Positions 13,349 to 64,000 of a stretch of DNA of 64,000 nucleotides are shown in pieces. Position numbers and translations under genes: made by a program. The notes beneath the pieces were generated by a model, which made no database searches, had not been told where the DNA came from, and was given only the letters and a program-made list of their open reading frames with translations. The stretch is from Bryopsis sp. KO-2023 (lineage: Eukaryota > Chlorophyta > Ulvophyceae > Bryopsidales > Bryopsidaceae): contig BSYQ01000005.1 in NCBI GenBank assembly GCA_030272585.1, positions 5,983,501 to 6,047,500 of the forward strand, written 5' to 3'. How positions within the stretch are numbered: position 1 is the first letter of the stretch; each line of letters begins with the position of its first letter.

Positions 13349-14417
13349 GTAGGTTCGGGGAGCAGTCGGGGACAAGTGCCGTCGCGCGCGGGAACGAGGT
13401 TGCGCCAAAACTTCGGGAGGGTGTTCGTTCGTGGTTAGGACTCGTTCCGAGTTTTTTCATTGTTGCGATTTTCCGGGTGCTCGGATTCGGATATACGAGA
13501 GATATCGGCAATGGCCCATTTTGTTATCTCGAATTATCGCGTAAAAGGAGTTCTTCGTTTTCCATGGGTTTTTGGTGTCTTTTCGAGTTGTGGTGGTTTT
13601 TTTTCTTCTTTTTTTTCTTTCCTCGCAAGAGATCGATTCGTTTCTTTCTATTTTCGTCGTTCTTTTCTTATTTTTGTGCCGTTCGTTCCCTCCTTTCCTT
13701 CCAATAATCTTTCTTTTCTTTTCTTCCCTTTTCCGTGCTTTTCTGCTTTTTCCTTTTTCGATTCTTTCTCTTTCGGTCCTTTCGAGAAGATTCCATTTCC
13801 TTTGCATTCTTCTTTCGCCGTTTCGAAAGGTTTTTTTCTCCCCCTTCGAAATCAAACCGGTTTCTGTCTATCGTGTTTTCTCTCAAAGTTCATTTTCCTT
13901 CTTTCCCTCCCCCTTTTCTTTTCCTTTCTAGCTTTTTCGCTCTTTTCTTCGACCTCTCTCCCGATTTTCTCCCGAGAGGGATCCCGTGGATGATCCCGGA
14001 TTACCCGATCGGATGATCCAACAAGGGCGCGGTTGAACCCAGAAACGCCACCAACACGCCACCACCTGTGCGTTCCGTCGCCACACACGTCAAAACAGAA
14101 ACGAACATGCTCCCAAGGCTTTTTCGCTCTACTGCCGCTCACCCACGAGCTGACCCACACACACTCCACCGCCCGCGCGCGCGCTCACAGGCGCACACTC
14201 ACCCACACACCCACACACGAAAGATCGTGCCACACCTGAAAACGCTCCCACGGGGTCCTTTTCGATTGGATGAAGCCAAAAACACCATTTCACCGCTCTG
14301 CCCACCTCACCTCAAAAGAACAAACAAAAAACAATCGGTCCCCCAAACCGTCGGAGGGACACGTCCCTCGCGCACCTGAAAAACGGATACTTCACCTCCC
14401 GGCGTCCGCTTCAAAAC
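13349..14417. other. intergenic spacer of the array unit (unit 1 copy)
   Basis: No gene is recognised in this 1.07-kb segment, which recurs in each unit. About 13,560-13,975 is strongly pyrimidine-biased on the plus strand (T/C runs). Then follow short repeats of GGATCCCG/GGATGATCC (about 13,980-14,010) and a CA-rich stretch with a (CG)-rich core (about 14,155-14,215). Open frames of up to 300 codons here are low-complexity by-products of this composition. I looked for U6 and SRP RNA signatures and saw none. Confidence 0.6.
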
Positions 14418-14537
14418 GTGTTGCCATCAAACCACCGTGAATACATGCGATCCCTTCCGAACTCGCCAATCAAGCACGGTTGGGGCCGATCAGTACCGAG
14501 ATCAGGGATGTCTCAGGAATTCCGGCGGCGGCAACTC
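14418..14537 (+). rRNA. 5S ribosomal RNA (unit 1)
   Basis: Exactly 120 nt. The ends GTGTTGCC and GGCAACTC pair as helix I with one mismatch. Loop C (GATCCCTTCCGAACTC) and the internal promoter A-box region (AAGCACGGTTGGGGC) align with plant 5S, as does the helix IV/V region (GTACCGAGATCAGGGATGTCTCAGGAA). T runs for RNA polymerase III termination follow at 14550-14555 and 14563-14571. This copy has T at 14520 where other copies have A. Confidence 0.85.
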
Positions 14538-14603
14538 GGTGCACTGTTCTTTTTCCGTGCTTGTTTTTTTTGGGGGCTACGACCGGGAAGAAAAGGCCTT
14601 GAG

Positions 14604-14674
14604 TGCGTTGACCGGGAATCGAACCCGGGTCTCTACCGTGGCAGGGTAGTATGCTACCACTGTACCATCAACGC
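14604..14674 (-). tRNA. tRNA-Gly(GCC) (unit 1)
   Basis: Cloverleaf of 71 nt: acceptor GCGTTGA/TCAACGC, anticodon loop CTGCCAC in a CTACC/GGTAG stem, T arm CCGGGTTCGATTCCCGG. The decoded codon is GGC/GGU. Only four Ts follow the gene. Confidence 0.95.
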
Positions 14675-14941
14675 CTCGACGAAAATACCCGAGCTTGCTC
14701 GATCGGGTAACATGCGTGCGGGGGAATCGGGCCGGAACCGGGCAGAGGACTTTGGTCAAAATTCGGGTCCGGGGTTACGGTCGTGTTACCCGTCGCCGTA
14801 ATGCGGCCGTAATTGTGTTCCGTAACCGAAAGTTGTTTACTCTCCCGTCATTTACGGTAATTTATGGTCGGACAAGTTCTTACTACGGTTACGGTGACCG
14901 TGACCGTAGGGTCCTGTCTATGGTCGGAACGGAAGGGCGGA

Positions 14942-15015
14942 CGCCCGAGGAGGGACTCGAACCCTCGGCCACGAGATTAAAAGTCTCGCGCTCTGCCAAA
15001 CTGAGCTACCCGGGC
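14942..15015 (-). tRNA. tRNA-Lys(UUU) (unit 1)
   Basis: Acceptor GCCCGGG/CTCGGGC, anticodon loop CTTTTAA in CGAGA/TCTCG, T arm GAGGGTTCGAGTCCCTC, discriminator G. No run of four Ts within about 180 bp downstream. Confidence 0.95.
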
Positions 15016-15121
15016 ATATCTCAAGCAGGATCGCGCCGATCTCGTGGATCCCGATTCCGGGAATCTCGATCGCGGGGGGGCGACCGAGCCTCCACGCAGC
15101 GCGCGATCGACTCGTCGTCGA

Positions 15122-15203
15122 GCTGAGATGTCCGAGTGGTTAAGGAGGTGGACTCGAAATCCACTGGGTTCATCCCGCGTAGGTTCAAATCCTGCTCTCA
15201 GCG
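15122..15203 (+). tRNA. tRNA-Ser(CGA) (unit 1)
   Basis: Class II tRNA with long variable arm. Acceptor GCTGAGA/TCTCAGC, anticodon loop CTCGAAA in GTGGA/TCCAC. This copy has GTAGG in the T stem where others have GCAGG, giving a G-U pair. TTTTT follows 15 nt downstream. Confidence 0.95.
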
Positions 15204-15258
15204 AGCGTCGAAGTCGTTTTTCGGAGCGGCAAAAGACAAGGATGCAAGGTGGGCGTGC

Positions 15259-15320
15259 ATGAACCCGGGTCTCCTGCGTGACAGTGACAGGCAAGAATAC
15301 TCACCGCCGTACTGCAACGA
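15259..15320 (-). pseudogene. tRNA-Asp(GTC)-like relic (unit 1; present in every unit)
   Basis: Read on the minus strand, TACGGCGGTGAGTAT plus GCCTGTCAC and GCAGGAGACCCGGGTTC match the D arm, anticodon arm and start of the T arm of eukaryotic tRNA-Asp. It is broken by a 6-nt duplication (TGTCAC twice) in the anticodon loop and by loss of the 3' T stem and acceptor strand. Other copies lie 841-902 bases after each 5S start, for example 18049-18110, 20833-20894, 52788-52849 and 63924-63985. Confidence 0.6.
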
Positions 15321-15406
15321 CTCGATCACGATGACGAGGCTGACGATGAGGTTGATGACGAGGCGTGCGACGAGGATGGACGACGCGACGCCTCATCACG
15401 ACGTGA

Positions 15407-15488
15407 GTTGGGGTGTCCGAGTGGTTAAGGAGGTGGACTAGAAATCCATTGGGTTTGTCCCGCGCAGGTTCGAATCCTGCCCTCAACG
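15407..15488 (+). tRNA. tRNA-Ser(AGA) (unit 1)
   Basis: Class II; acceptor GTTGGGG/CCTCAAC, anticodon loop CTAGAAA in GTGGA/TCCAT, T arm GCAGGTTCGAATCCTGC. A34 would be read as inosine. This copy has T at 15464 (stem TCCAT) where others have C. It is more than 80% like Ser-CGA, so the two are probably duplicates. No T4 run before the convergent Leu-CAG gene. Confidence 0.95.
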
Positions 15489-15544
15489 AGGCATGTGTGT
15501 GCGTGTGTGTTCGCGAACCGAGGGGGTGACGCGGAAAGGCACGT

Positions 15545-15627
15545 TGTGGTGAGTGGGATTCGAACCCACGCTCGTCTCCGAACTAGAACCTGAATCTAGC
15601 GCCTTAGACCAACTCGGCCATCACCAC
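15545..15627 (-). tRNA. tRNA-Leu(CAG) (unit 1)
   Basis: Class II, 83 nt; acceptor GTGGTGA/TCACCAC, anticodon loop TTCAGGT in CTAGA/TCTAG, T arm GTGGGTTCGAATCCCAC. Convergent with Ser-AGA 56 bp away, with no T4 terminator on either strand between them. Confidence 0.95.
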
Positions 15628-15725
15628 ACCATCGTCGCTCGGGAGCCACCCCCACGAGGGCCCCGCCCCGGACGGGAGTCGCAGGCGACGCCCCCCGAGA
15701 TCGGCGGCACGGAAATCTTTCCGTG

Positions 15726-15817
15726 GCCTCGGTGGCGCAGTCGGTTAGCGCGTCGGTCTCATAACCTCGTGAGCCATCCGGAGGTCACCAGTTCGATCCT
15801 GGTCCTGGTCCGGGGCA
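15726..15817 (+). tRNA. elongator tRNA-Met(CAU), intron-containing, with 6-nt duplication (unit 1)
   Basis: Acceptor GCCTCGG/CCGGGGC, anticodon loop start CTCATA, then an intron of about 12-13 nt after position 37, then CCGG. The D arm and body match eukaryotic elongator tRNA-Met. This copy repeats CCTGGT at the T-stem/acceptor junction. That leaves six extra nucleotides and probably a non-functional tRNA. An 8-bp hairpin (CACGGAAA/TTTCCGTG) sits directly upstream. Confidence 0.65.
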
Positions 15818-15865
15818 ACCAACGCTTTTGACGGGACGCCCCACGCCACGTCACAAATTCTGACG

Positions 15866-15946
15866 TGTGGCGAGTGGGATTTGAACCCACGCCCTTTCGG
15901 ACTGGAACCTTACTCCAGCGCCTTGGACCAACTCGGCCATCGCCAC
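15866..15946 (-). tRNA. tRNA-Leu(AAG) (unit 1)
   Basis: Class II, 81 nt; acceptor GTGGCGA/TCGCCAC, anticodon loop GTAAGGT in CTGGA/TCCAG. Just 3' of the gene, TGACGTGGCG can pair with the acceptor 3' strand plus trailer (CGCCACACGTCA). No T4 terminator nearby. Confidence 0.95.
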
Positions 15947-16021
15947 ATACGAGAGGAGGGGTCCGCCGCGCGTCTTCAAGCTGGGGTCTCGGACGTCGGT
16001 CCGCTAAAAAAAGAGCACGAG

Positions 16022-16092
16022 TGCGTTGACCGGGAATCGAACCCGGGTCTCTACCTTGGGAGGGTAGTATGCTACCACTATATCACCAACGC
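16022..16092 (-). tRNA. tRNA-Gly(CCC) (unit 1)
   Basis: Acceptor GCGTTGG/TCAACGC, anticodon loop CTCCCAA (A37) in CTACC/GGTAG. The body is nearly the same as Gly-GCC, so it is likely a duplicate with a changed anticodon. A T7 run follows 11-17 nt downstream. Confidence 0.95.
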
Positions 16093-17207
16093 GGCTCGAG
16101 GGATGGCGCGTGCGGAGAGCGTGGTAGGTTCGGGAAGCTGTCGGGAAGCTGTCGGGGACAAGTGCCGTCGCGCGCGGGAACGAGGTTGCGCCAAAACTTC
16201 GGGAGGGTGTTCGTTCGTGGTTAGGACTCGTTTCGAGTTTTTTCATCGTTGCAATTTTTCCGGGTGCTCGGATTCGGATATACGAGAGATATCGGCAATG
16301 GCCCATTTCGTTCGCTCGAATTATCGCGTAAAAGGAGTTCTTCGTTTTCCATGGGTTTTTGGTGTCTCTTCGAGTTGTGGTGTATTATTATTATTTTTAT
16401 TTTTTTCTTTCCTCGCAAGAGATCGATTCGTTTCTTTCTATTTTCGTCGTTCTTTTCTTATTTTTGTGCCGTTCGTTCCCTCCTTTCCTTCCAATAATCT
16501 TTCTTTTCTTTTCTTCCCTTTTCCGTGCTTTTCTGCTTTTTCCTTTTTCGATTCTTTCTCTTTCGGTCCTTTCGAGAAGATTCCATTTCCTTTGCATTCT
16601 TCTTTCGCCGTTTCGAAAGGTTTTTTTCTCCCCCTTCGAAATCAAACCGGTTTCTGTCTATCGTGTTTTCTCTCAAAGTTCATTTTCCTTCTTTCCCTCC
16701 CCCTTTTCTTTTCCTTTCTAGCTTTTTCGCTCTTTTCTTCGACCTCTCTCCCGATTTTCTCCCGAGAGGGATCCCGTGGATGATCCCGGATTACCCGATC
16801 GGATGATCCAACAAGGGCGCGGTTGAACCCAGAAACGCCACCAACACGCCACCACCTGTGCGTTCCGTCGCCACACACGTCAAAACAGAAACGAACATGC
16901 TCCCAAGGCTTTTTCGCTCTACTGCCGCTCACCCACGAGCTGACCCACACACACTCCACCGCCCGCGCGCGCGCTCACAGGCGCACACTCACCCACACAC
17001 CCACACACGAAAGATCGTGCCACACCTGAAAACGCTCCCACGGGGTCCTTTTCGATTGGATGAAGCCAAAAACACCATTTCACCGCTCTGCCCACCTCAC
17101 CTCAAAAGAACAAACAAAAAACAATCGGTCCCCCAAACCGTCGGAGGGACACGTCCCTCGCGCACCTGAAAAACGGATACTTCACCTCCCGGCGTCCGCT
17201 TCAAAAC

Positions 17208-17327
17208 GTGTTGCCATCAAACCACCGTGAATACATGCGATCCCTTCCGAACTCGCCAATCAAGCACGGTTGGGGCCGATCAGTACCGAGATCAGGGATG
17301 TCTCAGGAAATCCGGCGGCGGCAACTC
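17208..17327 (+). rRNA. 5S ribosomal RNA (unit 2)
   Basis: Array-consensus sequence (A at 5S position 103). Confidence 0.85.
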
Positions 17328-17393
17328 GGTGCACTGTTCTTTTTCCGTGCTTGTTTTTTTTGGGGGCTACGACCGGGAAGAAAAGGCCTTGAG

Positions 17394-17464
17394 TGCGTTG
17401 ACCGGGAATCGAACCCGGGTCTCTACCGTGGCAGGGTAGTATGCTACCACTGTACCATCAACGC
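17394..17464 (-). tRNA. tRNA-Gly(GCC) (unit 2)
   Basis: Same cloverleaf as in unit 1. Confidence 0.95.
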
Positions 17465-17731
17465 CTCGACGAAAATACCCGAGCTTGCTCGATCGGGTAA
17501 CATGCGTGCGGGGGAATCGGGCCGGAACCGGGCAGAGGACTTTGGTCAAAATTCGGGTCCGGGGTTACGGTCGTGTTACCCGTCGCCGTAATGCGGCCGT
17601 AATTGTGTTCCGTAACCGAAAGTTGTTTACTCTCCCGTCATTTACGGTAATTTATGGTCGGACAAGTTCTTACTACGGTTACGGTGACCGTGACCGTAAG
17701 GTCCTGTCTATGGTCGGAACGGAAGGGCGGA

Positions 17732-17805
17732 CGCCCGAGGAGGGACTCGAACCCTCGGCCACGAGATTAAAAGTCTCGCGCTCTGCCAAACTGAGCTACC
17801 CGGGC
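17732..17805 (-). tRNA. tRNA-Lys(UUU) (unit 2)
   Basis: Same as unit 1. Confidence 0.95.
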
Positions 17806-17911
17806 ATATCTCAAGCAGGATCGCGCCGATCTCGTGGATCCCGATTCCGGGAATCTCGATCGCGGGGGGGCGACCGAGCCTCCACGCAGCGCGCGATCGA
17901 CTCGTCGTCGA

Positions 17912-17993
17912 GCTGAGATGTCCGAGTGGTTAAGGAGGTGGACTCGAAATCCACTGGGTTCATCCCGCGCAGGTTCAAATCCTGCTCTCAGCG
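17912..17993 (+). tRNA. tRNA-Ser(CGA) (unit 2)
   Basis: T stem GCAGG/CCTGC fully paired (array consensus). Confidence 0.95.
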
Positions 17994-18196
17994 AGCGTCG
18001 AAGTCGTTTTTCGGAGCGGCAAAAGACAAGGATGCAAGGTGGGCGTGCATGAACCCGGGTCTCCTGCGTGACAGTGACAGGCAAGAATACTCACCGCCGT
18101 ACTGCAACGACTCGATCACGATGACGAGGCTGACGATGAGGTTGATGACGAGGCGTGCGACGAGGATGGACGACGCGACGCCTCATCACGACGTGA

Positions 18197-18278
18197 GTTG
18201 GGGTGTCCGAGTGGTTAAGGAGGTGGACTAGAAATCCACTGGGTTTGTCCCGCGCAGGTTCGAATCCTGCCCTCAACG
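18197..18278 (+). tRNA. tRNA-Ser(AGA) (unit 2)
   Basis: Anticodon stem GTGGA/TCCAC fully paired (array consensus). Confidence 0.95.
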
Positions 18279-18334
18279 AGGCATGTGTGTGCGTGTGTGT
18301 TCGCGAACCGAGGGGGTGACGCGGAAAGGCACGT

Positions 18335-18417
18335 TGTGGTGAGTGGGATTCGAACCCACGCTCGTCTCCGAACTAGAACCTGAATCTAGCGCCTTAGACC
18401 AACTCGGCCATCACCAC
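18335..18417 (-). tRNA. tRNA-Leu(CAG) (unit 2)
   Basis: Same as unit 1. Confidence 0.95.
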
Positions 18418-18515
18418 ACCATCGTCGCTCGGGAGCCACCCCCACGAGGGCCCCGCCCCGGACGGGAGTCGCAGGCGACGCCCCCCGAGATCGGCGGCAC
18501 GGAAATCTTTCCGTG

Positions 18516-18601
18516 GCCTCGGTGGCGCAGTCGGTTAGCGCGTCGGTCTCATAACCTCGTGAGCCATCCGGAGGTCACCAGTTCGATCCTGGTCCGGGGC
18601 A
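18516..18601 (+). tRNA. elongator tRNA-Met(CAU), intron-containing (unit 2)
   Basis: Intact form: T arm ACCAGTTCGATCCTGGT runs straight into acceptor CCGGGGC plus A. An intron of about 12-13 nt follows the anticodon CAT-A. After splicing four of five anticodon-stem pairs form, with a possible mismatch at 31-39. Confidence 0.9.
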
Positions 18602-18649
18602 ACCAACGCTTTTGACGGGACGCCCCACGCCACGTCACAAATTCTGACG

Positions 18650-18730
18650 TGTGGCGAGTGGGATTTGAACCCACGCCCTTTCGGACTGGAACCTTACTCC
18701 AGCGCCTTGGACCAACTCGGCCATCGCCAC
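18650..18730 (-). tRNA. tRNA-Leu(AAG) (unit 2)
   Basis: Same as unit 1. Confidence 0.95.
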
Positions 18731-18805
18731 ATACGAGAGGAGGGGTCCGCCGCGCGTCTTCAAGCTGGGGTCTCGGACGTCGGTCCGCTAAAAAAAGAGC
18801 ACGAG

Positions 18806-18876
18806 TGCGTTGACCGGGAATCGAACCCGGGTCTCTACCTTGGGAGGGTAGTATGCTACCACTATATCACCAACGC
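18806..18876 (-). tRNA. tRNA-Gly(CCC) (unit 2)
   Basis: A37 form. Confidence 0.95.
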
Positions 18877-19991
18877 GGCTCGAGGGATGGCGCGTGCGGA
18901 GAGCGTGGTAGGTTCGGGAAGCTGTCGGGAAGCTGTCGGGGACAAGTGCCGTCGCGCGCGGGAACGAGGTTGCGCCAAAACTTCGGGAGGGTGTTCGTTC
19001 GTGGTTAGGACTCGTTTCGAGTTTTTTCATCGTTGCAATTTTTCCGGGTGCTCGGATTCGGATATACGAGAGATATCGGCAATGGCCCATTTCGTTCGCT
19101 CGAATTATCGCGTAAAAGGAGTTCTTCGTTTTCCATGGGTTTTTGGTGTCTCTTCGAGTTGTGGTGTATTATTATTATTTTTATTTTTTTCTTTCCTCGC
19201 AAGAGATCGATTCGTTTCTTTCTATTTTCGTCGTTCTTTTCTTATTTTTGTGCCGTTCGTTCCCTCCTTTCCTTCCAATAATCTTTCTTTTCTTTTCTTC
19301 CCTTTTCCGTGCTTTTCTGCTTTTTCCTTTTTCGATTCTTTCTCTTTCGGTCCTTTCGAGAAGATTCCATTTCCTTTGCATTCTTCTTTCGCCGTTTCGA
19401 AAGGTTTTTTTCTCCCCCTTCGAAATCAAACCGGTTTCTGTCTATCGTGTTTTCTCTCAAAGTTCATTTTCCTTCTTTCCCTCCCCCTTTTCTTTTCCTT
19501 TCTAGCTTTTTCGCTCTTTTCTTCGACCTCTCTCCCGATTTTCTCCCGAGAGGGATCCCGTGGATGATCCCGGATTACCCGATCGGATGATCCAACAAGG
19601 GCGCGGTTGAACCCAGAAACGCCACCAACACGCCACCACCTGTGCGTTCCGTCGCCACACACGTCAAAACAGAAACGAACATGCTCCCAAGGCTTTTTCG
19701 CTCTACTGCCGCTCACCCACGAGCTGACCCACACACACTCCACCGCCCGCGCGCGCGCTCACAGGCGCACACTCACCCACACACCCACACACGAAAGATC
19801 GTGCCACACCTGAAAACGCTCCCACGGGGTCCTTTTCGATTGGATGAAGCCAAAAACACCATTTCACCGCTCTGCCCACCTCACCTCAAAAGAACAAACA
19901 AAAAACAATCGGTCCCCCAAACCGTCGGAGGGACACGTCCCTCGCGCACCTGAAAAACGGATACTTCACCTCCCGGCGTCCGCTTCAAAAC

Positions 19992-20111
19992 GTGTTGCCA
20001 TCAAACCACCGTGAATACATGCGATCCCTTCCGAACTCGCCAATCAAGCACGGTTGGGGCCGATCAGTACCGAGATCAGGGATGTCTCAGGAAATCCGGC
20101 GGCGGCAACTC
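19992..20111 (+). rRNA. 5S ribosomal RNA (unit 3)
   Basis: Array-consensus sequence. Confidence 0.85.
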
Positions 20112-20177
20112 GGTGCACTGTTCTTTTTCCGTGCTTGTTTTTTTTGGGGGCTACGACCGGGAAGAAAAGGCCTTGAG

Positions 20178-20248
20178 TGCGTTGACCGGGAATCGAACCC
20201 GGGTCTCTACCGTGGCAGGGTAGTATGCTACCACTGTACCATCAACGC
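20178..20248 (-). tRNA. tRNA-Gly(GCC) (unit 3)
   Basis: Same as unit 1. Confidence 0.95.
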
Positions 20249-20515
20249 CTCGACGAAAATACCCGAGCTTGCTCGATCGGGTAACATGCGTGCGGGGGAA
20301 TCGGGCCGGAACCGGGCAGAGGACTTTGGTCAAAATTCGGGTCCGGGGTTACGGTCGTGTTACCCGTCGCCGTAATGCGGCCGTAATTGTGTTCCGTAAC
20401 CGAAAGTTGTTTACTCTCCCGTCATTTACGGTAATTTATGGTCGGACAAGTTCTTACTACGGTTACGGTGACCGTGACCGTAAGGTCCTGTCTATGGTCG
20501 GAACGGAAGGGCGGA

Positions 20516-20589
20516 CGCCCGAGGAGGGACTCGAACCCTCGGCCACGAGATTAAAAGTCTCGCGCTCTGCCAAACTGAGCTACCCGGGC
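20516..20589 (-). tRNA. tRNA-Lys(UUU) (unit 3)
   Basis: Same as unit 1. Confidence 0.95.
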
Positions 20590-20695
20590 ATATCTCAAGC
20601 AGGATCGCGCCGATCTCGTGGATCCCGATTCCGGGAATCTCGATCGCGGGGGGGCGACCGAGCCTCCACGCAGCGCGCGATCGACTCGTCGTCGA

Positions 20696-20777
20696 GCTGA
20701 GATGTCCGAGTGGTTAAGGAGGTGGACTCGAAATCCACTGGGTTCATCCCGCGCAGGTTCAAATCCTGCTCTCAGCG
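20696..20777 (+). tRNA. tRNA-Ser(CGA) (unit 3)
   Basis: Array consensus. Confidence 0.95.
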
Positions 20778-20980
20778 AGCGTCGAAGTCGTTTTTCGGAG
20801 CGGCAAAAGACAAGGATGCAAGGTGGGCGTGCATGAACCCGGGTCTCCTGCGTGACAGTGACAGGCAAGAATACTCACCGCCGTACTGCAACGACTCGAT
20901 CACGATGACGAGGCTGACGATGAGGTTGATGACGAGGCGTGCGACGAGGATGGACGACGCGACGCCTCATCACGACGTGA

Positions 20981-21062
20981 GTTGGGGTGTCCGAGTGGTT
21001 AAGGAGGTGGACTAGAAATCCACTGGGTTTGTCCCGCGCAGGTTCGAATCCTGCCCTCAACG
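20981..21062 (+). tRNA. tRNA-Ser(AGA) (unit 3)
   Basis: Array consensus. Confidence 0.95.
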
Positions 21063-52590: not shown

Positions 52591-52597
52591 AGGTTTG

Positions 52598-56253: not shown

Positions 56254-56328
56254 ATACGAGAGGAGGGGTCCGCCGCGCGTCTTCAAGCTGGGGTCTCGGA
56301 CGTCGGTCCGCTAAAAAAAGAGCACGAG

Positions 56329-56399
56329 TGCGTTGACCGGGAATCGAACCCGGGTCTCTACCTCGGGAGGGTAGTATGCTACCACTATATCACCAACGC
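56329..56399 (-). tRNA. tRNA-Gly(CCC) (unit 13)
   Basis: G37 form. Confidence 0.95.
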
Positions 56400-57514
56400 G
56401 GCTCGAGGGATTGCGCGTGCGGAGAGCGTGGTAGGTTCGGGAAGCTGTCGGGAAGCTGTCGGGGACAAGTGCCGTCGCGCGCGGGAACGAGGTTGCGCCA
56501 AAACTTCGGGAGGGTGTTCGTTCGTGGTTAGGACTCGTTTCGAGTTTTTTCATCGTTGCGATTTTTCCGGGTGCTCGGATTCGGATATACGAGAGATATC
56601 GGCAATGGCCCATTTCGTTCGCTCGAATTATCGCGTAAAAGGAGTTCTTCGTTTTCCATGGGTTTTTGGTGTCTCTTCGAGTTGTGGTGTATTATTATTA
56701 TTTTTATTTTTTTCTTTCCTCGCAAGAGATCGATTCGTTTCTTTCTATTTTTGTCGTTCTTTTCTTATTTTTGTGCCGTTCGTTCCCTCCTTTCCTTCCA
56801 ATAATCTTTCTTTTCTTTTCTTCCCTTTTCCGTGCTTTTCTGCTTTTTCCTTTTTCGATTCTTTCTCTTTCGGTCCTTTCGAGAAGATTCCATTTCCTTT
56901 GCATTCTTCTTTCGCCGTTTCGAAAGGTTTTTTTCTCCCCCTTCGAAATCAAACCGGTTTCTGTCTATCGTGTTTTCTCTCAAAGTTCATTTTCCTTCTT
57001 TCCCTCCCCCTTTTCTTTTCCTTTCTAGCTTTTTCGCTCTTTTCTTCGACCTCTCTCCCGATTTTCTCCCGAGAGGGATCCCGTGGATGATCCCGGATTA
57101 CCCGATCGGATGATCCAACAAGGGCGCGGTTGAACCCAGAAACGCCACCAACACGCCACCACCTGTGCGTTCCGTCGCCACACACGTCAAAACAGAAACG
57201 AACATGCTCCCAAGGCTTTTTCGCTCTACTGCCGCTCACCCACGAGCTGACCCACACACACTCCACCGCCCGCGCGCGCGCTCACAGGCGCACACTCACC
57301 CACACACCCACACACGAAAGATCGTGCCACACCTGAAAACGCTCCCACGGGGTCCTTTTCGATTGGATGAAGCCAAAAACACCATTTCACCGCTCTGCCC
57401 ACCTCACCTCAAAAGAACAAACAAAAAACAATCGGTCCCCCAAACCGTCGGAGGGACACGTCCCTCGCGCACCTGAAAAACGGATACTTCACCTCCCGGC
57501 GTCCGCTTCAAAAC

Positions 57515-57634
57515 GTGTTGCCATCAAACCACCGTGAATACATGCGATCCCTTCCGAACTCGCCAATCAAGCACGGTTGGGGCCGATCAGTACCGAGATC
57601 AGGGATGTCTCAGGAAATCCGGCGGCGGCAACTC
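57515..57634 (+). rRNA. 5S ribosomal RNA (unit 14)
   Basis: Array consensus. Confidence 0.85.
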
Positions 57635-57700
57635 GGTGCACTGTTCTTTTTCCGTGCTTGTTTTTTTTGGGGGCTACGACCGGGAAGAAAAGGCCTTGAG

Positions 57701-57771
57701 TGCGTTGACCGGGAATCGAACCCGGGTCTCTACCGTGGCAGGGTAGTATGCTACCACTGTACCATCAACGC
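57701..57771 (-). tRNA. tRNA-Gly(GCC) (unit 14)
   Basis: Array consensus. Confidence 0.95.
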
Positions 57772-58038
57772 CTCGACGAAAATACCCGAGCTTGCTCGAT
57801 CGGGTAACATGCGTGCGGGGGAATCGGGCCGGAACCGGGCAGAGGACTTTGGTCAAAATTCGGGTCCGGGGTTACGGTCGTGTTACCCGTCGCCGTAATG
57901 CGGCCGTAATTGTGTTCCGTAACCGAAAGTTGTTTACTCTCCCGTCATTTACGGTAATTTATGGTCGGACAAGTTCTTACTACGGTTACGGTGACCGTGA
58001 CCGTAAGGTCCTGTCTATGGTCGGAACGGAAGGGCGGA

Positions 58039-58112
58039 CGCCCGAGGAGGGACTCGAACCCTCGGCCACGAGATTAAAAGTCTCGCGCTCTGCCAAACTG
58101 AGCTACCCGGGC
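58039..58112 (-). tRNA. tRNA-Lys(UUU) (unit 14)
   Basis: Array consensus. Confidence 0.95.
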
Positions 58113-58218
58113 ATATCTCAAGCAGGATCGCGCCGATCTCGTGGATCCCGATTCCGGGAATCTCGATCGCGGGGGGGCGACCGAGCCTCCACGCAGCGCG
58201 CGATCGACTCGTCGTCGA

Positions 58219-58300
58219 GCTGAGATGTCCGAGTGGTTAAGGAGGTGGACTCGAAATCCACTGGGTTCATCCCGCGCAGGTTCAAATCCTGCTCTCAGCG
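58219..58300 (+). tRNA. tRNA-Ser(CGA) (unit 14)
   Basis: Array consensus. Confidence 0.95.
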
Positions 58301-58503
58301 AGCGTCGAAGTCGTTTTTCGGAGCGGCAAAAGACAAGGATGCAAGGTGGGCGTGCATGAACCCGGGTCTCCTGCGTGACAGTGACAGGCAAGAATACTCA
58401 CCGCCGTACTGCAACGACTCGATCACGATGACGAGGCTGACGATGAGGTTGATGACGAGGCGTGCGACGAGGATGGACGACGCGACGCCTCATCACGACG
58501 TGA

Positions 58504-58585
58504 GTTGGGGTGTCCGAGTGGTTAAGGAGGTGGACTAGAAATCCACTGGGTTTGTCCCGCGCAGGTTCGAATCCTGCCCTCAACG
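58504..58585 (+). tRNA. tRNA-Ser(AGA) (unit 14)
   Basis: Array consensus. Confidence 0.95.
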
Positions 58586-58641
58586 AGGCATGTGTGTGCG
58601 TGTGTGTTCGCGAACCGAGGGGGTGACGCGGAAAGGCACGT

Positions 58642-58724
58642 TGTGGTGAGTGGGATTCGAACCCACGCTCGTCTCCGAACTAGAACCTGAATCTAGCGCC
58701 TTAGACCAACTCGGCCATCACCAC
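58642..58724 (-). tRNA. tRNA-Leu(CAG) (unit 14)
   Basis: Array consensus. Confidence 0.95.
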
Positions 58725-58822
58725 ACCATCGTCGCTCGGGAGCCACCCCCACGAGGGCCCCGCCCCGGACGGGAGTCGCAGGCGACGCCCCCCGAGATCG
58801 GCGGCACGGAAATCTTTCCGTG

Positions 58823-58908
58823 GCCTCGGTGGCGCAGTCGGTTAGCGCGTCGGTCTCATAACCTCGTGAGCCATCCGGAGGTCACCAGTTCGATCCTGGT
58901 CCGGGGCA
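58823..58908 (+). tRNA. tRNA-Met(CAU), intron-containing (unit 14)
   Basis: Intact short form. Confidence 0.9.
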
Positions 58909-58956
58909 ACCAACGCTTTTGACGGGACGCCCCACGCCACGTCACAAATTCTGACG

Positions 58957-59037
58957 TGTGGCGAGTGGGATTTGAACCCACGCCCTTTCGGACTGGAACC
59001 TTACTCCAGCGCCTTGGACCAACTCGGCCATCGCCAC
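58957..59037 (-). tRNA. tRNA-Leu(AAG) (unit 14)
   Basis: Array consensus. Confidence 0.95.
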
Positions 59038-59112
59038 ATACGAGAGGAGGGGTCCGCCGCGCGTCTTCAAGCTGGGGTCTCGGACGTCGGTCCGCTAAAA
59101 AAAGAGCACGAG

Positions 59113-59183
59113 TGCGTTGACCGGGAATCGAACCCGGGTCTCTACCTCGGGAGGGTAGTATGCTACCACTATATCACCAACGC
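59113..59183 (-). tRNA. tRNA-Gly(CCC) (unit 14)
   Basis: G37 form. Confidence 0.95.
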
Positions 59184-60298
59184 GGCTCGAGGGATGGCGC
59201 GTGCGGAGAGCGTGGTAGGTTCGGGAAGCTGTCGGGAAGCTGTCGGGGACAAGTGCCGTCGCGCGCGGGAACGAGGTTGCGCCAAAACTTCGGGAGGGTG
59301 TTCGTTCGTGGTTAGGACTCGTTTCGAGTTTTTTCATCGTTGCGATTTTTCCGGGTGCTCGGATTCGGATATACGAGAGATATCGGCAATGGCCCATTTC
59401 GTTCGCTCGAATTATCGCGTAAAAGGAGTTCTTCGTTTTCCATGGGTTTTTGGTGTCTCTTCGAGTTGTGGTGTATTATTATTATTTTTATTTTTTTCTT
59501 TCCTCGCAAGAGATCGATTCGTTTCTTTCTATTTTCGTCGTTCTTTTCTTATTTTTGTGCCGTTCGTTCCCTCCTTTCCTTCCAATAATCTTTCTTTTCT
59601 TTTCTTCCCTTTTCCGTGCTTTTCTGCTTTTTCCTTTTTCGATTCTTTCTCTTTCGGTCCTTTCGAGAAGATTCCATTTCCTTTGCATTCTTCTTTCGCC
59701 GTTTCGAAAGGTTTTTTTCTCCCCCTTCGAAATCAAACCGGTTTCTGTCTATCGTGTTTTCTCTCAAAGTTCATTTTCCTTCTTTCCCTCCCCCTTTTCT
59801 TTTCCTTTCTAGCTTTTTCGCTCTTTTCTTCGACCTCTCTCCCGATTTTCTCCCGAGAGGGATCCCGTGGATGATCCCGGATTACCCGATCGGATGATCC
59901 AACAAGGGCGCGGTTGAACCCAGAAACGCCACCAACACGCCACCACCTGTGCGTTCCGTCGCCACACACGTCAAAACAGAAACGAACATGCTCCCAAGGC
60001 TTTTTCGCTCTACTGCCGCTCACCCACGAGCTGACCCACACACACTCCACCGCCCGCGCGCGCGCTCACAGGCGCACACTCACCCACACGCCCACACACG
60101 AAAGATCGTGCCACACCTGAAAACGCTCCCACGGGGTCCTTTTCGATTGGATGAAGCCAAAAACACCATTTCACCGCTCTGCCCACCTCACCTCAAAAGA
60201 ACAAACAAAAAACAATCGGTCCCCCAAACCGTCGGAGGGACACGTCCCTCGCGCACCTGAAAAACGGATACTTCACCTCCCGGCGTCCGCTTCAAAAC

Positions 60299-60418
60299 GT
60301 GTTGCCATCAAACCACCGTGAATACATGCGATCCCTTCCGAACTCGCCAATCAAGCACGGTTGGGGCCGATCAGTACCGAGATCAGGGATGTCTCAGGAA
60401 ATCCGGCGGCGGCAACTC
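60299..60418 (+). rRNA. 5S ribosomal RNA (unit 15)
   Basis: Array consensus. Confidence 0.85.
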
Positions 60419-60484
60419 GGTGCACTGTTCTTTTTCCGTGCTTGTTTTTTTTGGGGGCTACGACCGGGAAGAAAAGGCCTTGAG

Positions 60485-60555
60485 TGCGTTGACCGGGAAT
60501 CGAACCCGGGTCTCTACCGTGGCAGGGTAGTATGCTACCACTGTACCATCAACGC
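60485..60555 (-). tRNA. tRNA-Gly(GCC) (unit 15)
   Basis: Array consensus. Confidence 0.95.
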
Positions 60556-60822
60556 CTCGACGAAAATACCCGAGCTTGCTCGATCGGGTAACATGCGTGC
60601 GGGGGAATCGGGCCGGAACCGGGCAGAGGACTTTGGTCAAAATTCGGGTCCGGGGTTACGGTCGTGTTACCCGTCGCCGTAATGCGGCCGTAATTGTGTT
60701 CCGTAACCGAAAGTTGTTTACTCTCCCGTCATTTACGGTAATTTATGGTCGGACAAGTTCTTACTACGGTTACGGTGACCGTGACCGTAAGGTCCTGTCT
60801 ATGGTCGGAACGGAAGGGCGGA

Positions 60823-60896
60823 CGCCCGAGGAGGGACTCGAACCCTCGGCCACGAGATTAAAAGTCTCGCGCTCTGCCAAACTGAGCTACCCGGGC
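60823..60896 (-). tRNA. tRNA-Lys(UUU) (unit 15)
   Basis: Array consensus. Confidence 0.95.
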
Positions 60897-61002
60897 ATAT
60901 CTCAAGCAGGATCGCGCCGATCTCGTGGATCCCGATTCCGGGAATCTCGATCGCGGGGGGGCGACCGAGCCTCCACGCAGCGCGCGATCGACTCGTCGTC
61001 GA

Positions 61003-61084
61003 GCTGAGATGTCCGAGTGGTTAAGGAGGTGGACTCGAAATCCACTGGGTTCATCCCGCGCAGGTTCAAATCCTGCTCTCAGCG
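61003..61084 (+). tRNA. tRNA-Ser(CGA) (unit 15)
   Basis: Array consensus. Confidence 0.95.
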
Positions 61085-61287
61085 AGCGTCGAAGTCGTTT
61101 TTCGGAGCGGCAAAAGACAAGGATGCAAGGTGGGCGTGCATGAACCCGGGTCTCCTGCGTGACAGTGACAGGCAAGAATACTCACCGCCGTACTGCAACG
61201 ACTCGATCACGATGACGAGGCTGACGATGAGGTTGATGACGAGGCGTGCGACGAGGATGGACGACGCGACGCCTCATCACGACGTGA

Positions 61288-61369
61288 GTTGGGGTGTCCG
61301 AGTGGTTAAGGAGGTGGACTAGAAATCCACTGGGTTTGTCCCGCGCAGGTTCGAATCCTGCCCTCAACG
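61288..61369 (+). tRNA. tRNA-Ser(AGA) (unit 15)
   Basis: Array consensus. Confidence 0.95.
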
Positions 61370-61425
61370 AGGCATGTGTGTGCGTGTGTGTTCGCGAACC
61401 GAGGGGGTGACGCGGAAAGGCACGT

Positions 61426-61508
61426 TGTGGTGAGTGGGATTCGAACCCACGCTCGTCTCCGAACTAGAACCTGAATCTAGCGCCTTAGACCAACTCGGCC
61501 ATCACCAC
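61426..61508 (-). tRNA. tRNA-Leu(CAG) (unit 15)
   Basis: Array consensus. Confidence 0.95.
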
Positions 61509-61606
61509 ACCATCGTCGCTCGGGAGCCACCCCCACGAGGGCCCCGCCCCGGACGGGAGTCGCAGGCGACGCCCCCCGAGATCGGCGGCACGGAAATCTT
61601 TCCGTG

Positions 61607-61692
61607 GCCTCGGTGGCGCAGTCGGTTAGCGCGTCGGTCTCATAACCTCGTGAGCCATCCGGAGGTCACCAGTTCGATCCTGGTCCGGGGCA
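61607..61692 (+). tRNA. tRNA-Met(CAU), intron-containing (unit 15)
   Basis: Intact short form. Confidence 0.9.
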
Positions 61693-61740
61693 ACCAACGC
61701 TTTTGACGGGACGCCCCACGCCACGTCACAAATTCTGACG

Positions 61741-61821
61741 TGTGGCGAGTGGGATTTGAACCCACGCCCTTTCGGACTGGAACCTTACTCCAGCGCCTTG
61801 GACCAACTCGGCCATCGCCAC
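61741..61821 (-). tRNA. tRNA-Leu(AAG) (unit 15)
   Basis: Array consensus. Confidence 0.95.
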
Positions 61822-61896
61822 ATACGAGAGGAGGGGTCCGCCGCGCGTCTTCAAGCTGGGGTCTCGGACGTCGGTCCGCTAAAAAAAGAGCACGAG

Positions 61897-61967
61897 TGCG
61901 TTGACCGGGAATCGAACCCGGGTCTCTACCTCGGGAGGGTAGTATGCTACCACTATATCACCAACGC
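61897..61967 (-). tRNA. tRNA-Gly(CCC) (unit 15)
   Basis: G37 form. Confidence 0.95.
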
Positions 61968-63082
61968 GGCTCGAGGGATGGCGCGTGCGGAGAGCGTGGT
62001 AGGTTCGGGAAGCTGTCGGGAAGCTGTCGGGGACAAGTGCCGTCGCGCGCGGGAACGAGGTTGCGCCAAAACTTCGGGAGGGTGTTCGTTCGTGGTTAGG
62101 ACTCGTTTCGAGTTTTTTCATCGTTGCGATTTTTCCGGGTGCTCGGATTCGGATATACGAGAGATATCGGCAATGGCCCATTTCGTTCGCTCGAATTATC
62201 GCGTAAAAGGAGTTCTTCGTTTTCCATGGGTTTTTGGTGTCTCTTCGAGTTGTGGTGTATTATTATTATTTTTATTTTTTTCTTTCCTCGCAAGAGATCG
62301 ATTCGTTTCTTTCTATTTTCGTCGTTCTTTTCTTATTTTTGTGCCGTTCGTTCCCTCCTTTCCTTCCAATAATCTTTCTTTTCTTTTCTTCCCTTTTCCG
62401 TGCTTTTCTGCTTTTTCCTTTTTCGATTCTTTCTCTTTCGGTCCTTTCGAGAAGATTCCATTTCCTTTGCATTCTTCTTTCGCCGTTTCGAAAGGTTTTT
62501 TTCTCCCCCTTCGAAATCAAACCGGTTTCTGTCTATCGTGTTTTCTCTCAAAGTTCATTTTCCTTCTTTCCCTCCCCCTTTTCTTTTCCTTTCTAGCTTT
62601 TTCGCTCTTTTCTTCGACCTCTCTCCCGATTTTCTCCCGAGAGGGATCCCGTGGATGATCCCGGATTACCCGATCGGATGATCCAACAAGGGCGCGGTTG
62701 AACCCAGAAACGCCACCAACACGCCACCACCTGTGCGTTCCGTCGCCACACACGTCAAAACAGAAACGAACATGCTCCCAAGGCTTTTTCGCTCTACTGC
62801 CGCTCACCCACGAGCTGACCCACACACACTCCACCGCCCGCGCGCGCGCTCACAGGCGCACACTCACCCACACGCCCACACACGAAAGATCGTGCCACAC
62901 CTGAAAACGCTCCCACGGGGTCCTTTTCGATTGGATGAAGCCAAAAACACCATTTCACCGCTCTGCCCACCTCACCTCAAAAGAACAAACAAAAAACAAT
63001 CGGTCCCCCAAACCGTCGGAGGGACACGTCCCTCGCGCACCTGAAAAACGGATACTTCACCTCCCGGCGTCCGCTTCAAAAC

Positions 63083-63202
63083 GTGTTGCCATCAAACCAC
63101 CGTGAATACATGCGATCCCTTCCGAACTCGCCAATCAAGCACGGTTGGGGCCGATCAGTACCGAGATCAGGGATGTCTCAGGAAATCCGGCGGCGGCAAC
63201 TC
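63083..63202 (+). rRNA. 5S ribosomal RNA (unit 16)
   Basis: Array consensus; the first downstream T run is interrupted by a C in this copy, the second is intact. Confidence 0.85.
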
Positions 63203-63268
63203 GGTGCACTGTTCCTTTTCCGTGCTTGTTTTTTTTGGGGGCTACGACCGGGAAGAAAAGGCCTTGAG

Positions 63269-63339
63269 TGCGTTGACCGGGAATCGAACCCGGGTCTCTA
63301 CCGTGGCAGGGTAGTATGCTACCACTGTACCATCAACGC
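63269..63339 (-). tRNA. tRNA-Gly(GCC) (unit 16)
   Basis: Array consensus. Confidence 0.95.
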
Positions 63340-63606
63340 CTCGACGAAAATACCCGAGCTTGCTCGATCGGGTAACATGCGTGCGGGGGAATCGGGCCGG
63401 AACCGGGCAGAGGACTTTGGTCAAAATTCGGGTCCGGGGTTACGGTCGTGTTACCCGTCGCCGTAATGCGGCCGTAATTGTGTTCCGTAACCGAAAGTTG
63501 TTTACTCTCCCGTCATTTACGGTAATTTATGGTCGGACAAGTTCTTACTACGGTTACGGTGACCGTGACCGTAAGGTCCTGTCTATGGTCGGAACGGAAG
63601 GGCGGA

Positions 63607-63680
63607 CGCCCGAGGAGGGACTCGAACCCTCGGCCACGAGATTAAAAGTCTCGCGCTCTGCCAAACTGAGCTACCCGGGC
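63607..63680 (-). tRNA. tRNA-Lys(UUU) (unit 16)
   Basis: Array consensus. Confidence 0.95.
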
Positions 63681-63786
63681 ATATCTCAAGCAGGATCGCG
63701 CCGATCTCGTGGATCCCGATTCCGGGAATCTCGATCGCGGGGGGGCGACCGAGCCTCCACGCAGCGCGCGATCGACTCGTCGTCGA

Positions 63787-63868
63787 GCTGAGATGTCCGA
63801 GTGGTTAAGGAGGTGGACTCGAAATCCACTGGGTTCATCCCGCGCAGGTTCAAATCCTGCTCTCAGCG
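63787..63868 (+). tRNA. tRNA-Ser(CGA) (unit 16)
   Basis: Array consensus; last complete gene in the window. Confidence 0.95.
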
Positions 63869-64000
63869 AGCGTCGAAGTCGTTTTTCGGAGCGGCAAAAG
63901 ACAAGGATGCAAGGTGGGCGTGCATGAACCCGGGTCTCCTGCGTGACAGTGACAGGCAAGAATACTCACCGCCGTACTGCAACGACTCGATCACGATGAC

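What the first reader, a model, noticed from the sequence alone, without database searches (positions are those of the whole stretch)
13349..64000. Tandem array of a composite 5S rRNA + eight-tRNA unit, at least 16 copies
Each unit of about 2.78 kb joins a 120-nt 5S gene to eight tRNA genes on both strands (Gly x2, Ser x2, Leu x2, Lys, Met). Tandem tRNA units, some with 5S, are best known from Entamoeba. Tandem tRNA clusters in plants have one or two isoacceptors. A mixed 5S/eight-tRNA repeat in a probable green alga looks undescribed. It could be a dosage device for part of the codon table, and concerted evolution would then act on 5S and tRNAs together.
Basis: partly seen in the sequence, partly recalled or inferred. 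Interest (0 to 1): 0.92.

Follow-up and report, generated by a model that had tools for sequence, protein, structure and literature searches.

The report
tRNA genes packed in tandem arrays
In this probable Bryopsis seaweed genome, tRNA genes for all 20 amino acids, with extra copies of the 5S ribosomal RNA gene, sit in three kinds of long tandem repeat, an organisation best known from the amoeba Entamoeba, and four tRNAs searched for genome-wide were found only in or right beside these repeats.

Summary
The array is real. The window holds 15 complete units (one split by a transposon) and part of a 16th; each has one 5S and eight tRNA genes in 2,784 or 2,790 bp (16 5S and 123 tRNA matches). It continues to about 55 units over 192 kb of contig C5 in a 91-Mb genome, very probably Bryopsis sp. 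KO-2023.

It is part of a system. An inverted sister array (about 45 units; two sampled units carry the same nine genes) lies about 104 kb upstream. A 12-tRNA unit without 5S occurs about 45 times on C5. An 11-kb unit with 5S plus 26 tRNAs (one read in full) occurs about 23 times on C5, C9 and C10. Together they hold all 20 amino acids and 40 of 46 standard tRNA species.

Genome-wide patterns (up to 3 mismatches) for Lys-TTT (100), Trp (23), Gln (24) and initiator Met (23) hit only array regions (one Lys lies just beside). Between sister arrays genes are 99.6% identical, spacers 93.5%. Neighbouring units share variants.

Closest known: Entamoeba arrays (at most 6 tRNAs + 5S per unit). No full tRNA scan, expression or function test was possible. 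A new variant of a known kind.

The parts
13355..14418 (+). left edge of array A: partial unit (unit positions 1717-2784), 98.3% identical
14419..17208 (+). unit 1 (2790 bp; Met gene with 6-nt duplication)
17209..19992 (+). unit 2, reference unit (2784 bp)
17209..17327 (+). 5S rRNA gene of reference unit
   Evidence: RF00001 76.9 bits
17394..17464 (-). tRNA-Gly(GCC)
   Evidence: 64.2 bits
17732..17805 (-). tRNA-Lys(TTT)
   Evidence: 70.0 bits; 100 genome matches: 55 in array A, 44 in array B, 1 beside B
17912..17993 (+). tRNA-Ser(CGA)
   Evidence: 61.5 bits
18197..18278 (+). tRNA-Ser(AGA)
   Evidence: 56.9 bits
18335..18417 (-). tRNA-Leu(CAG)
   Evidence: 60.7 bits
18516..18601 (+). tRNA-Met(CAT) with 12-nt intron
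   Evidence: 51.6 bits; intron
18650..18730 (-). tRNA-Leu(AAG)
   Evidence: 55.3 bits
18806..18876 (-). tRNA-Gly(CCC)
   Evidence: 60.0 bits
18877..19992 (.). spacer of the reference unit without known RNA gene, largely pyrimidine-rich
   Evidence: no Rfam match above its gathering score here
19993..22782 (+). unit 3 (2790 bp)
22783..25566 (+). unit 4
25567..28356 (+). unit 5 (2790 bp)
28357..31146 (+). unit 6 (2790 bp)
31147..33930 (+). unit 7
33931..36714 (+). unit 8
36715..39498 (+). unit 9
39499..42282 (+). unit 10
42283..45066 (+). unit 11
45067..54731 (+). unit 12, split by a transposon between Lys-TTT and Ser-CGA
45725..52596 (.). hAT-type insertion, 6,872 bp (9 nt shared at the junctions, read here as an 8-bp target duplication ATCGCGGG; hAT dimerisation domain on the minus strand at 46798-47382)
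54732..57515 (+). unit 13
57516..60299 (+). unit 14
60300..63083 (+). unit 15
63084..64000 (+). unit 16, cut by the window end; array goes on to about C5:6188672 (window scale 205172)

Best explanation
The window holds the start of one of a small set of rDNA-like 'tDNA' arrays that probably carry most of this alga's nuclear tRNA genes. Each gene in a unit is taken to be transcribed on its own by RNA polymerase III from internal promoters, on either strand (inferred from gene anatomy). Unequal exchange and gene conversion keep the units alike and let copy number drift (supported by the pattern of variants and by amplified insertions). The likely effect is high, adjustable tRNA dosage for a giant multinucleate cell: species in the 2.8-kb and 3.0-3.5-kb units have about 45-145 copies, those only in the 11-kb unit about 23 (from pattern counts, assuming complete units; dosage role inferred). 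The organism is very probably Bryopsis sp. KO-2023 (inferred).
For: Array anatomy. Inverted sister array B, C5:5728590-5892761; two sampled units have the same nine genes. 12-tRNA unit, 45 matches to a spacer pattern. 11,037-bp unit with 5S + 26 tRNAs; about 23 copies. No copy outside array regions within 3 mismatches: Lys-TTT 100 matches, 99 in A and B and 1 about 5.6 kb past B's last regular unit; Trp 23 of 23; Gln 24 of 24; initiator Met 23 of 23. Selection on genes: A versus B unit L050, 3 of 749 gene sites differ, no gaps, against 130 of 2,012 spacer sites and 76 gap columns, Fisher p = 8e-15; B unit L058, 2 of 749 (14 gap columns counted at Ser-AGA, which ARAGORN still reads whole) against 122 of 1,866 and 487 gap columns. 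Homogenisation: 45 variable columns in 47 units; adjacent sharing of minor alleles 34 against 10.3 +/- 3.8, maximum 24 in 2,000 permutations (six of the columns are one duplication); the same 7,780-bp retroelement at one site in three units. Copy number per amino acid tracks recalled average amino-acid use, rho 0.64, 0.76 without Met. Organism: 91,672-bp contig with psbA and 356,152-bp contig, 55.5% GC where sampled, with a start I read as cox3.
Against: No expression data. Only 21 of 47 scored genes (one unit of each kind) have a T4 run downstream: 5 of 9 within 100 nt, 10 of 26 and 6 of 12 within 60 nt. Ala and Val, used heavily by proteins, were found only in the low-copy unit, and Met is over-represented; amino acids with more isoacceptors get more copies anyway. 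[quoted passage not shown] The array 5S has an A-C mismatch at pair 8-111 where the other 5S families have G-C or C-G. Exceptions: one C12 place of seven listed was read and is a lone Ile-TAT; 2 of 39 Val matches are dispersed; other isolated tRNA hits on C1, C5, C8 and C9 were not read; several 5S are dispersed; 6 standard tRNA species were not located; the one full 11-kb unit read stands for about 23; on C10 the three copies are 18.6-25.5 kb apart, so not a regular array.
Confidence: 0.72

Rival explanations
1. Neutral ratchet: tRNA and 5S genes were captured by chance into duplicating segments, and unequal exchange keeps them in arrays without any benefit of the array form.
For: A defective-looking Met allele (6-nt T-arm duplication) is in 4 of 47 units, and units with a 7.8-kb retroelement were amplified to three. 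The 12-tRNA and 8-tRNA units share segments at 80-85% identity, as expected if units arose by shuffling. For Entamoeba the authors write that spread of variant units needs no selective advantage (PMC2652664, Discussion part 1 read).
Against: Genes are far more conserved than spacers, though that shows selection on the genes and not on the array form. Copy numbers differ between unit kinds in the direction of amino-acid demand, only loosely.
Confidence: 0.4
2. Chromosome-structure role: arrays act as boundaries, replication barriers, or sub-telomeric or pericentromeric blocks, the tRNA output being secondary.
For: Arrays A and B are in inverted orientation about 104 kb apart. The 11-kb units reach within about 0.4 kb of the end of contig C5 and about 3.7 kb of the end of C9. 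The human 1q23.3 tRNA repeat is proposed as a boundary (PMC4041453, title, abstract and passages).
Against: Of the DNA between B and A, the 13 kb scanned for proteins holds ordinary genes; 20 kb more was only checked for tRNAs and has none; the rest was not read. Matches to the A/B and 12-tRNA patterns lie on C5 alone, so these arrays cannot serve every chromosome. Contig ends may be assembly breaks.
Confidence: 0.12
3. Mostly silent reservoir: the arrays are heterochromatic and only a few units, or the few dispersed genes, supply tRNA.
For: A tandem Ser/Tyr tRNA cluster in Arabidopsis is silent in most tissues (PMC12308677, start of abstract in listings). Retroelements, one with a chromodomain, have inserted into array A.
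Against: For Lys-TTT, Trp, Gln-CTG and initiator Met no gene outside array regions was found within 3 mismatches, so at least some array copies must be active unless more divergent genes exist.
Confidence: 0.15
4. Assembly artefact: one or few units multiplied by the assembler.
For: The last 25 units of array A (about 70 kb) have no large insertion and are longer than the PacBio CLR read N50 of 33.7 kb quoted for the strain (PMC12509668, first part of text), so the count can be off.
Against: Units carry different variants, insertions and edges. The inverted sister array is 6.5% diverged in spacers. Two other unit kinds exist at separate places.
Confidence: 0.03

Closest known systems
Entamoeba tRNA gene arrays (Tawari et al. 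2008, PMC2652664: abstract, three sections in full, one in part, and passages read)
   Same: Almost all tRNA genes in tandem arrays of mixed units, some with 5S; uniform units; few dispersed genes. E. invadens has a 2,364-bp unit with 6 tRNAs and 5S, and also a 5S-only array, both closely matched here.
   Different: Entamoeba species have some 20-25 unit kinds of 1-6 tRNAs each; here three kinds with 8, 12 and 26 tRNAs. Unrelated lineage (inferred green alga). No short tandem repeats between all genes. Most 5S-core matches lie outside the composite arrays.
Xenopus laevis 3.18-kb tandem tDNA repeat with eight tRNA genes (recalled; one search did not find it)
   Same: Unit length, eight mixed tRNA genes per unit, and about a hundred or more copies, as recalled.
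   Different: No 5S as recalled; many Xenopus tRNA genes also lie elsewhere as recalled; a vertebrate.
Human 1q23.3 tRNA variable-number tandem repeat (PMC4041453, abstract and passages)
   Same: Tandem units (9-43 per allele) with several tRNA genes on both strands.
   Different: Five tRNAs per 7.3-kb unit, no 5S in the passages read, a small part of the human tRNA set; proposed boundary element.
Large tRNA gene clusters across eukaryotes, incl. green algae (PMC2888827, passages)
   Same: High clustering evolved many times (Nematostella 89%, stickleback 87%, zebrafish 65%, Chlamydomonas 56%, Volvox 41% of tRNA genes); its authors state large clusters are not restricted to Entamoeba, which tempers the novelty.
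   Different: The passages seen describe clusters, mostly small; none is described as a composite repeat with 5S that covers most of a tRNA set.
Leishmania major tRNA clusters (PMC2695483, passages)
   Same: Pol III genes of mixed kinds, including 5S, clustered on both strands; one cluster has 10 tRNAs and a 5S.
   Different: Described as clusters, not tandem arrays; 83 tRNA genes in all.
Arabidopsis Ser/Tyr tRNA tandem cluster (PMC12308677, start of abstract in listings)
   Same: Tandemly repeated tRNA genes in the green lineage.
   Different: Two amino acids only; silent in most tissues.
Classical 5S rDNA tandem arrays
   Same: Tandem, homogenised 5S copies.
   Different: Unit here also holds tRNAs; this genome has a classical 5S array with about 193-bp spacing separately on C13.

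Membership tests
Entamoeba-type tRNA gene arrays | Head-to-tail tandem units that each hold several different tRNA genes | tested here: met
Entamoeba-type tRNA gene arrays | Some units also encode 5S | tested here: met
   8-tRNA unit and 26-tRNA unit carry 5S
Entamoeba-type tRNA gene arrays | Almost all tRNA genes of the genome are in arrays | tested here: inconclusive
   40 of 46 standard species seen in arrays; 4 species tested genome-wide have no copy outside array regions within 3 mismatches. Val has 2 dispersed of 39, one lone Ile-TAT was read, 6 species not located; no full tRNA scan was possible
Entamoeba-type tRNA gene arrays | Units within an array nearly identical in sequence | tested here: met
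   45 variable columns of 2,794 over 47 units of array A
Entamoeba-type tRNA gene arrays | Short tandem repeats between adjacent genes (E. histolytica and E. dispar only) | tested here: not met
   only three small repeats of 11-25 bp period with about 2-3 copies per unit
Entamoeba-type tRNA gene arrays | Descent from the Entamoeba arrays | not testable with these tools
   organism very probably a green alga (plastid contig with psbA), so independent origin is inferred, not tested
Classical 5S rDNA array | Short unit of 5S plus spacer only | tested here: not met
   2,784-bp unit with eight tRNAs; the C13 array does meet it
Functional nuclear tRNA and 5S genes | Fold accepted by covariance models and purifying selection | tested here: met
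   all nine genes over gathering score; 3 of 749 against 130 of 2,012 differences; but the A/B 5S has lost one pair that the other families keep
Functional nuclear tRNA and 5S genes | Transcription by Pol III | not testable with these tools
   no RNA data; B-box core seen in all eight tRNAs, T4 run in 5 of 9 genes

The most novel reading that the evidence does not exclude
A green plant-lineage nucleus has independently consolidated its translation RNA genes into an rDNA-like 'tDNA' system: essentially the whole tRNA set plus extra 5S genes in three composite tandem units (8 + 5S, 12, and 26 + 5S), the last being the largest tRNA repeat unit known to me, with no backup copies for several essential tRNAs and with copy number tuned to demand in a giant coenocytic cell.
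Probability: 0.5. Interest if true: 0.87.

Novelty: new variant of a known kind. Interest (0 to 1): 0.78.

Why it matters
Composite tandem arrays that hold nearly a whole tRNA set are best documented in Entamoeba, where their function remains obscure (PMC2652664). Large tRNA clusters in general have arisen many times (PMC2888827). An apparently independent case in a cultured green alga would allow a comparative test of why tRNA genes become arrays. It is unusually clean: three unit kinds, measurable copy ratios, and essential tRNAs for which no copy outside the array regions was found. It also raises direct questions about how single-locus tRNA families avoid loss, how 5S variants coexist, and how a multinucleate giant cell sets tRNA supply.

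Tried and rejected
Rejected: chance resemblance (all nine genes pass covariance cut-offs); plastid or mitochondrial origin (the window lies on a 7.05-Mb contig, and plastid and presumed mitochondrial contigs are separate); the four-base 'CATA' anticodon as an odd tRNA (it is Met-CAT with a 12-nt intron); small-RNA-derived LTR elements such as Helenus/Ajax (seen only as a search listing; the units form head-to-tail arrays); C12 as a further array (one of its seven listed places was read and holds a single Ile-TAT gene).

Led nowhere: protein homology search for the organism (switched off); 18S search (not completed), so linkage to 45S rDNA is untested; psbA against solved structures confirms D1 but names no organism; a first script timed out and was replaced by BLAST; the DOI I tried from memory for the Bryopsis genome paper is not held. 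Amino-acid frequencies are recalled values, and its copy numbers assume that every unit is complete; one of two sampled 12-tRNA-type units in fact lacks an intact Met.


Full report
OBSERVATION. The described array is present. cmscan with Rfam gathering thresholds finds 139 matches in the window: 16 5S and 123 tRNAs. ARAGORN lists 119 of the tRNAs with the stated isotypes, and the four it misses are Met copies with a 6-nt duplication. With introns allowed, the 'CATA' gene is Met-CAT with a 12-nt intron. The array starts at window 13355 inside a unit; from 14419 there are 15 complete units, one of them split, and a 16th cut by the window end. Uninterrupted units are 2,784 or 2,790 bp and 99.6-100% identical to the reference unit at 17209-19992. 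Gene order on the + strand: 5S(+), Gly-GCC(-), Lys-TTT(-), Ser-CGA(+), Ser-AGA(+), Leu-CAG(-), Met(+), Leu-AAG(-), Gly-CCC(-), followed by about 1.1 kb without a known RNA gene. A permissive Rfam search of the unit adds only matches far below their families' cut-offs.

EXTENT. The window is C5:5983501-6047500 of a 91,088,769-base, 28-contig genome. Twelve further 10-kb stretches to the right give, with the window, 48 5S copies up to C5:6166280. A unit-specific 44-mer has 55 matches in the genome, all forward, all exact, control 0. The right edge is a partial unit ending near C5:6188672 with a 56th 5S at 98.3% identity. So array A spans about 192 kb.

THE REST OF THE SYSTEM. (B) On the opposite strand, about 104 kb upstream, 45 exact matches to the 5S core lie at C5:5728590-5887880. 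Two sampled units there carry the same 5S kind and eight tRNAs. (I) A unit with spacings mostly of 3.0-3.5 kb at C5:2.78-3.77 Mb has Ile-TAT, Leu-AAG, Glu-TTC, Ser-CGA, Asp-GTC, Ser-AGA, Leu-CAG, Met, Arg-TCT, Thr-CGT, Pro-CGG and Thr-TGT and no 5S; of two sampled units one (L052) has no intact Met, only a 46-nt piece of it. A 35-mer of its spacer occurs 45 times, all on C5, in three blocks of both orientations; the first block (8 copies over 137 kb) is loose. (III) An 11,037-bp unit at C5:6915552-6926589 holds one 5S and 26 tRNAs: Asn, Val-CAC, Cys, Trp, Ile-AAT, Arg-CCT, Gly-GCC, Asp, Phe, Gln-CTG, Ala-AGC, His, Thr-AGT, Tyr (12-nt intron), Arg-TCG, Pro-AGG, Pro-TGG, Leu-CAA, Gly-TCC, Ala-CGC, Lys-CTT, Met (the initiator by its sequence, my reading), Ala-TGC, Arg-ACG, Glu-CTC, Ser-GCT (5S). 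This is the one unit of the kind read in full; others were sampled over about 3.1 kb around the 5S. A longer variant adds Val-AAC. Copies lie at C5 6.91-7.05 Mb, C9 5.58-5.68 Mb and C10 5.08-5.13 Mb; on C10 the three are 18.6-25.5 kb apart, so irregular. Units I and A share blocks at about 80-85% identity, so they have common ancestry.

COVERAGE OF THE CODON TABLE. The unit kinds A/B, I and III hold 40 distinct tRNA species out of the 46 of a standard eukaryotic set (my count; the set of 46 is recalled), with all 20 amino acids and a separate initiator. Not located: Arg-CCG, Gln-TTG, Leu-TAA, Leu-TAG, Ser-TGA, Val-TAC.

ARE THE GENES ALSO DISPERSED? Pattern counts over the whole genome, without indels, with up to 3 mismatches (2 for Val): Lys-TTT 100 matches, of which 55 in A, 44 in B and 1 about 5.6 kb past B; Trp 23 of 23 in type III; Gln 24 of 24 in type III; initiator Met 23 of 23 in type III; Val 37 of 39 in type III and 2 dispersed. 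Controls were 0. More divergent genes would be missed, and the other species were not tested. Against the rule: the tRNA family search (63 best-scored matches of 8,630 candidates, so a lower bound) shows isolated hits on C1, C5, C8 and C9 and seven on C12, of which one C12 place was read and is a lone Ile-TAT. The 5S family search (47 best-scored) shows isolated 5S on C1, C4, C5, C6, C7 and C9, and a pattern adds one on C3 and a second on C1.

5S. The array 5S differs at 11 sites from the type III 5S and at 7 from the common C13 5S. C13 has a classical array with 5S genes about every 193 bp (L021). The 47-nt core with up to 3 mismatches occurs 1,006 times in the genome (163 forward, 843 reverse), against about 125 in arrays A, B and III, so most core matches are not in the composite arrays; only the first 100 places were listed. 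In the 5S structure, pair 17-61 is C-G in the arrays and U-A in C13, and pair 8-111 is G-C in type III, C-G in C13, but A-C in A and B. The A/B 5S may therefore be a slightly weaker variant.

FUNCTIONAL CONSTRAINT. Aligning unit A to a B unit (L050), 3 of 749 gene sites differ with no gaps, against 130 of 2,012 spacer sites plus 76 gap columns (Fisher p = 8e-15). With a second B unit (L058): 2 of 749 with 14 gap columns counted at Ser-AGA, which ARAGORN still reads whole, against 122 of 1,866 with 487 gap columns. Five of nine genes have a T4 run within 100 nt downstream, and 10 of 26 and 6 of 12 tRNA genes within 60 nt in types III and I. This is a point against simple textbook Pol III termination.

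HOMOGENISATION. Over 47 units of A there are 45 variable columns, six of which are one duplication. Minor alleles are shared by neighbours more than expected (34 against 10.3 +/- 3.8; maximum 24 of 2,000 permutations). A 7,780-bp element with 511-bp terminal repeats sits at the same site in three units, 99.99-100% identical; the copy that was scanned has Ty3/Gypsy-type gag and pol. This is most simply one insertion amplified with the array. Edge units are more divergent (98.3-98.5%). The Met duplication allele is in 4 of 47 units, and 2,790-bp spacing suggests three more near C5:6.17 Mb (spacing only).

ORGANISM. One contig of 91,672 bp carries psbA; one of 356,152 bp, 55.5% GC where sampled, carries a start that I read as cox3. 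A ribosomal protein S5 that I read as plastid-type is on C5. Large mitochondrial genomes are described for siphonous green algae (PMC6944098, start of abstract in a listing), and that of Bryopsis hypnoides is 408,555 bp with 57.9% GC (PMC11852573, passages). Bryopsis sp. KO-2023 has an assembly GCA_030272585.1 (PMC12509668, first part of text); that its genome is about 90.7 Mb is recalled. I put this identification at about 0.85.

EXPLANATION. An rDNA-like way of holding tRNA genes: Pol III genes packed on both strands, homogenised by exchange, with two copy classes (about 45-145 per species in A/B/I, about 23 for species only in III). Copy number per amino acid correlates with recalled average amino-acid use (rho 0.64; 0.76 without Met), which fits dosage. 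But isoacceptor number alone contributes to it, Ala and Val are exceptions, and Entamoeba shows no such link. A neutral ratchet is the main rival, and the two are not exclusive.

KNOWN RELATIVES. Entamoeba arrays are the closest described system: 25 units with up to 5 tRNAs in E. histolytica, and in E. invadens a 2,364-bp unit of 6 tRNAs plus 5S with a separate 5S-only array. Xenopus has, as I recall, a 3.18-kb eight-tRNA tandem unit (not found in the library). The human 1q23.3 repeat has five tRNAs per 7.3 kb. Large tRNA clusters occur in many eukaryotes, with 56% of Chlamydomonas and 41% of Volvox tRNA genes clustered (PMC2888827, passages). The window's unit alone is therefore a new example of a known kind; consolidation of this much of a tRNA set into three very large units in a green alga is what I would call a new variant.

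LIMITS. No RNA data. The 18S search never ran. Copy numbers rest on a long-read assembly, in which long identical runs can be mis-sized. The type III arrays run to the ends of C5 and C9, so those counts may be lower bounds.

Noticed in passing
window 45725-52596: hAT-type element with CAG...TG ends, target duplication and a hAT dimerisation domain; its interior has palindromic CCTGTCTGGACAGG-like minisatellites.
   Followed up: partly
C5:6065893, 6082033, 6095389 (L007-L011) and C5:6111450 (L012): Ty3/Gypsy-type elements (one, with gag, pol and chromodomain in the copy scanned, at the same unit site in three units) inserted about 180 and 260 bp upstream of 5S genes; yeast Ty3 also targets Pol III genes (recalled).
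   Followed up: partly
window 15726-15811, 21300-21385, 26874-26959, 29664-29749: Met tRNA allele with a 6-nt T-arm duplication, 36.2 instead of 51.6 bits, in four units.
   Followed up: yes
C13:73035-76153 (L021): Classical 5S array with about 193-bp spacing, carrying a further 5S sequence family with compensatory changes.
   Followed up: partly
window unit and L030, L051, L053: Many array genes have no T4 run within 60-100 nt downstream (26 of 47 genes scored in one unit of each kind), unusual for Pol III genes.
   Followed up: partly
C5:7015405-7018523 (L038) and C9 loci: Variant 11.5-kb unit with an added Val-AAC gene next to Val-CAC; unit III exists in subtypes that differ between places.
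   Followed up: partly
C5:5820291-5851017: Three successive 10,242-bp spacings in array B suggest another insertion amplified with its unit.
   Followed up: no
L052 961-1006 (C5:3122960-3123005): 46-nt piece of the Met tRNA gene left in a 12-tRNA-type unit without an intact Met.
   Followed up: partly
window 651-10720: Flanking genes: glutathione S-transferase-like, FAST-kinase-like, ribosomal protein S5 (plastid-type by my reading), CAF1B/HIR1-like WD40.
   Followed up: partly
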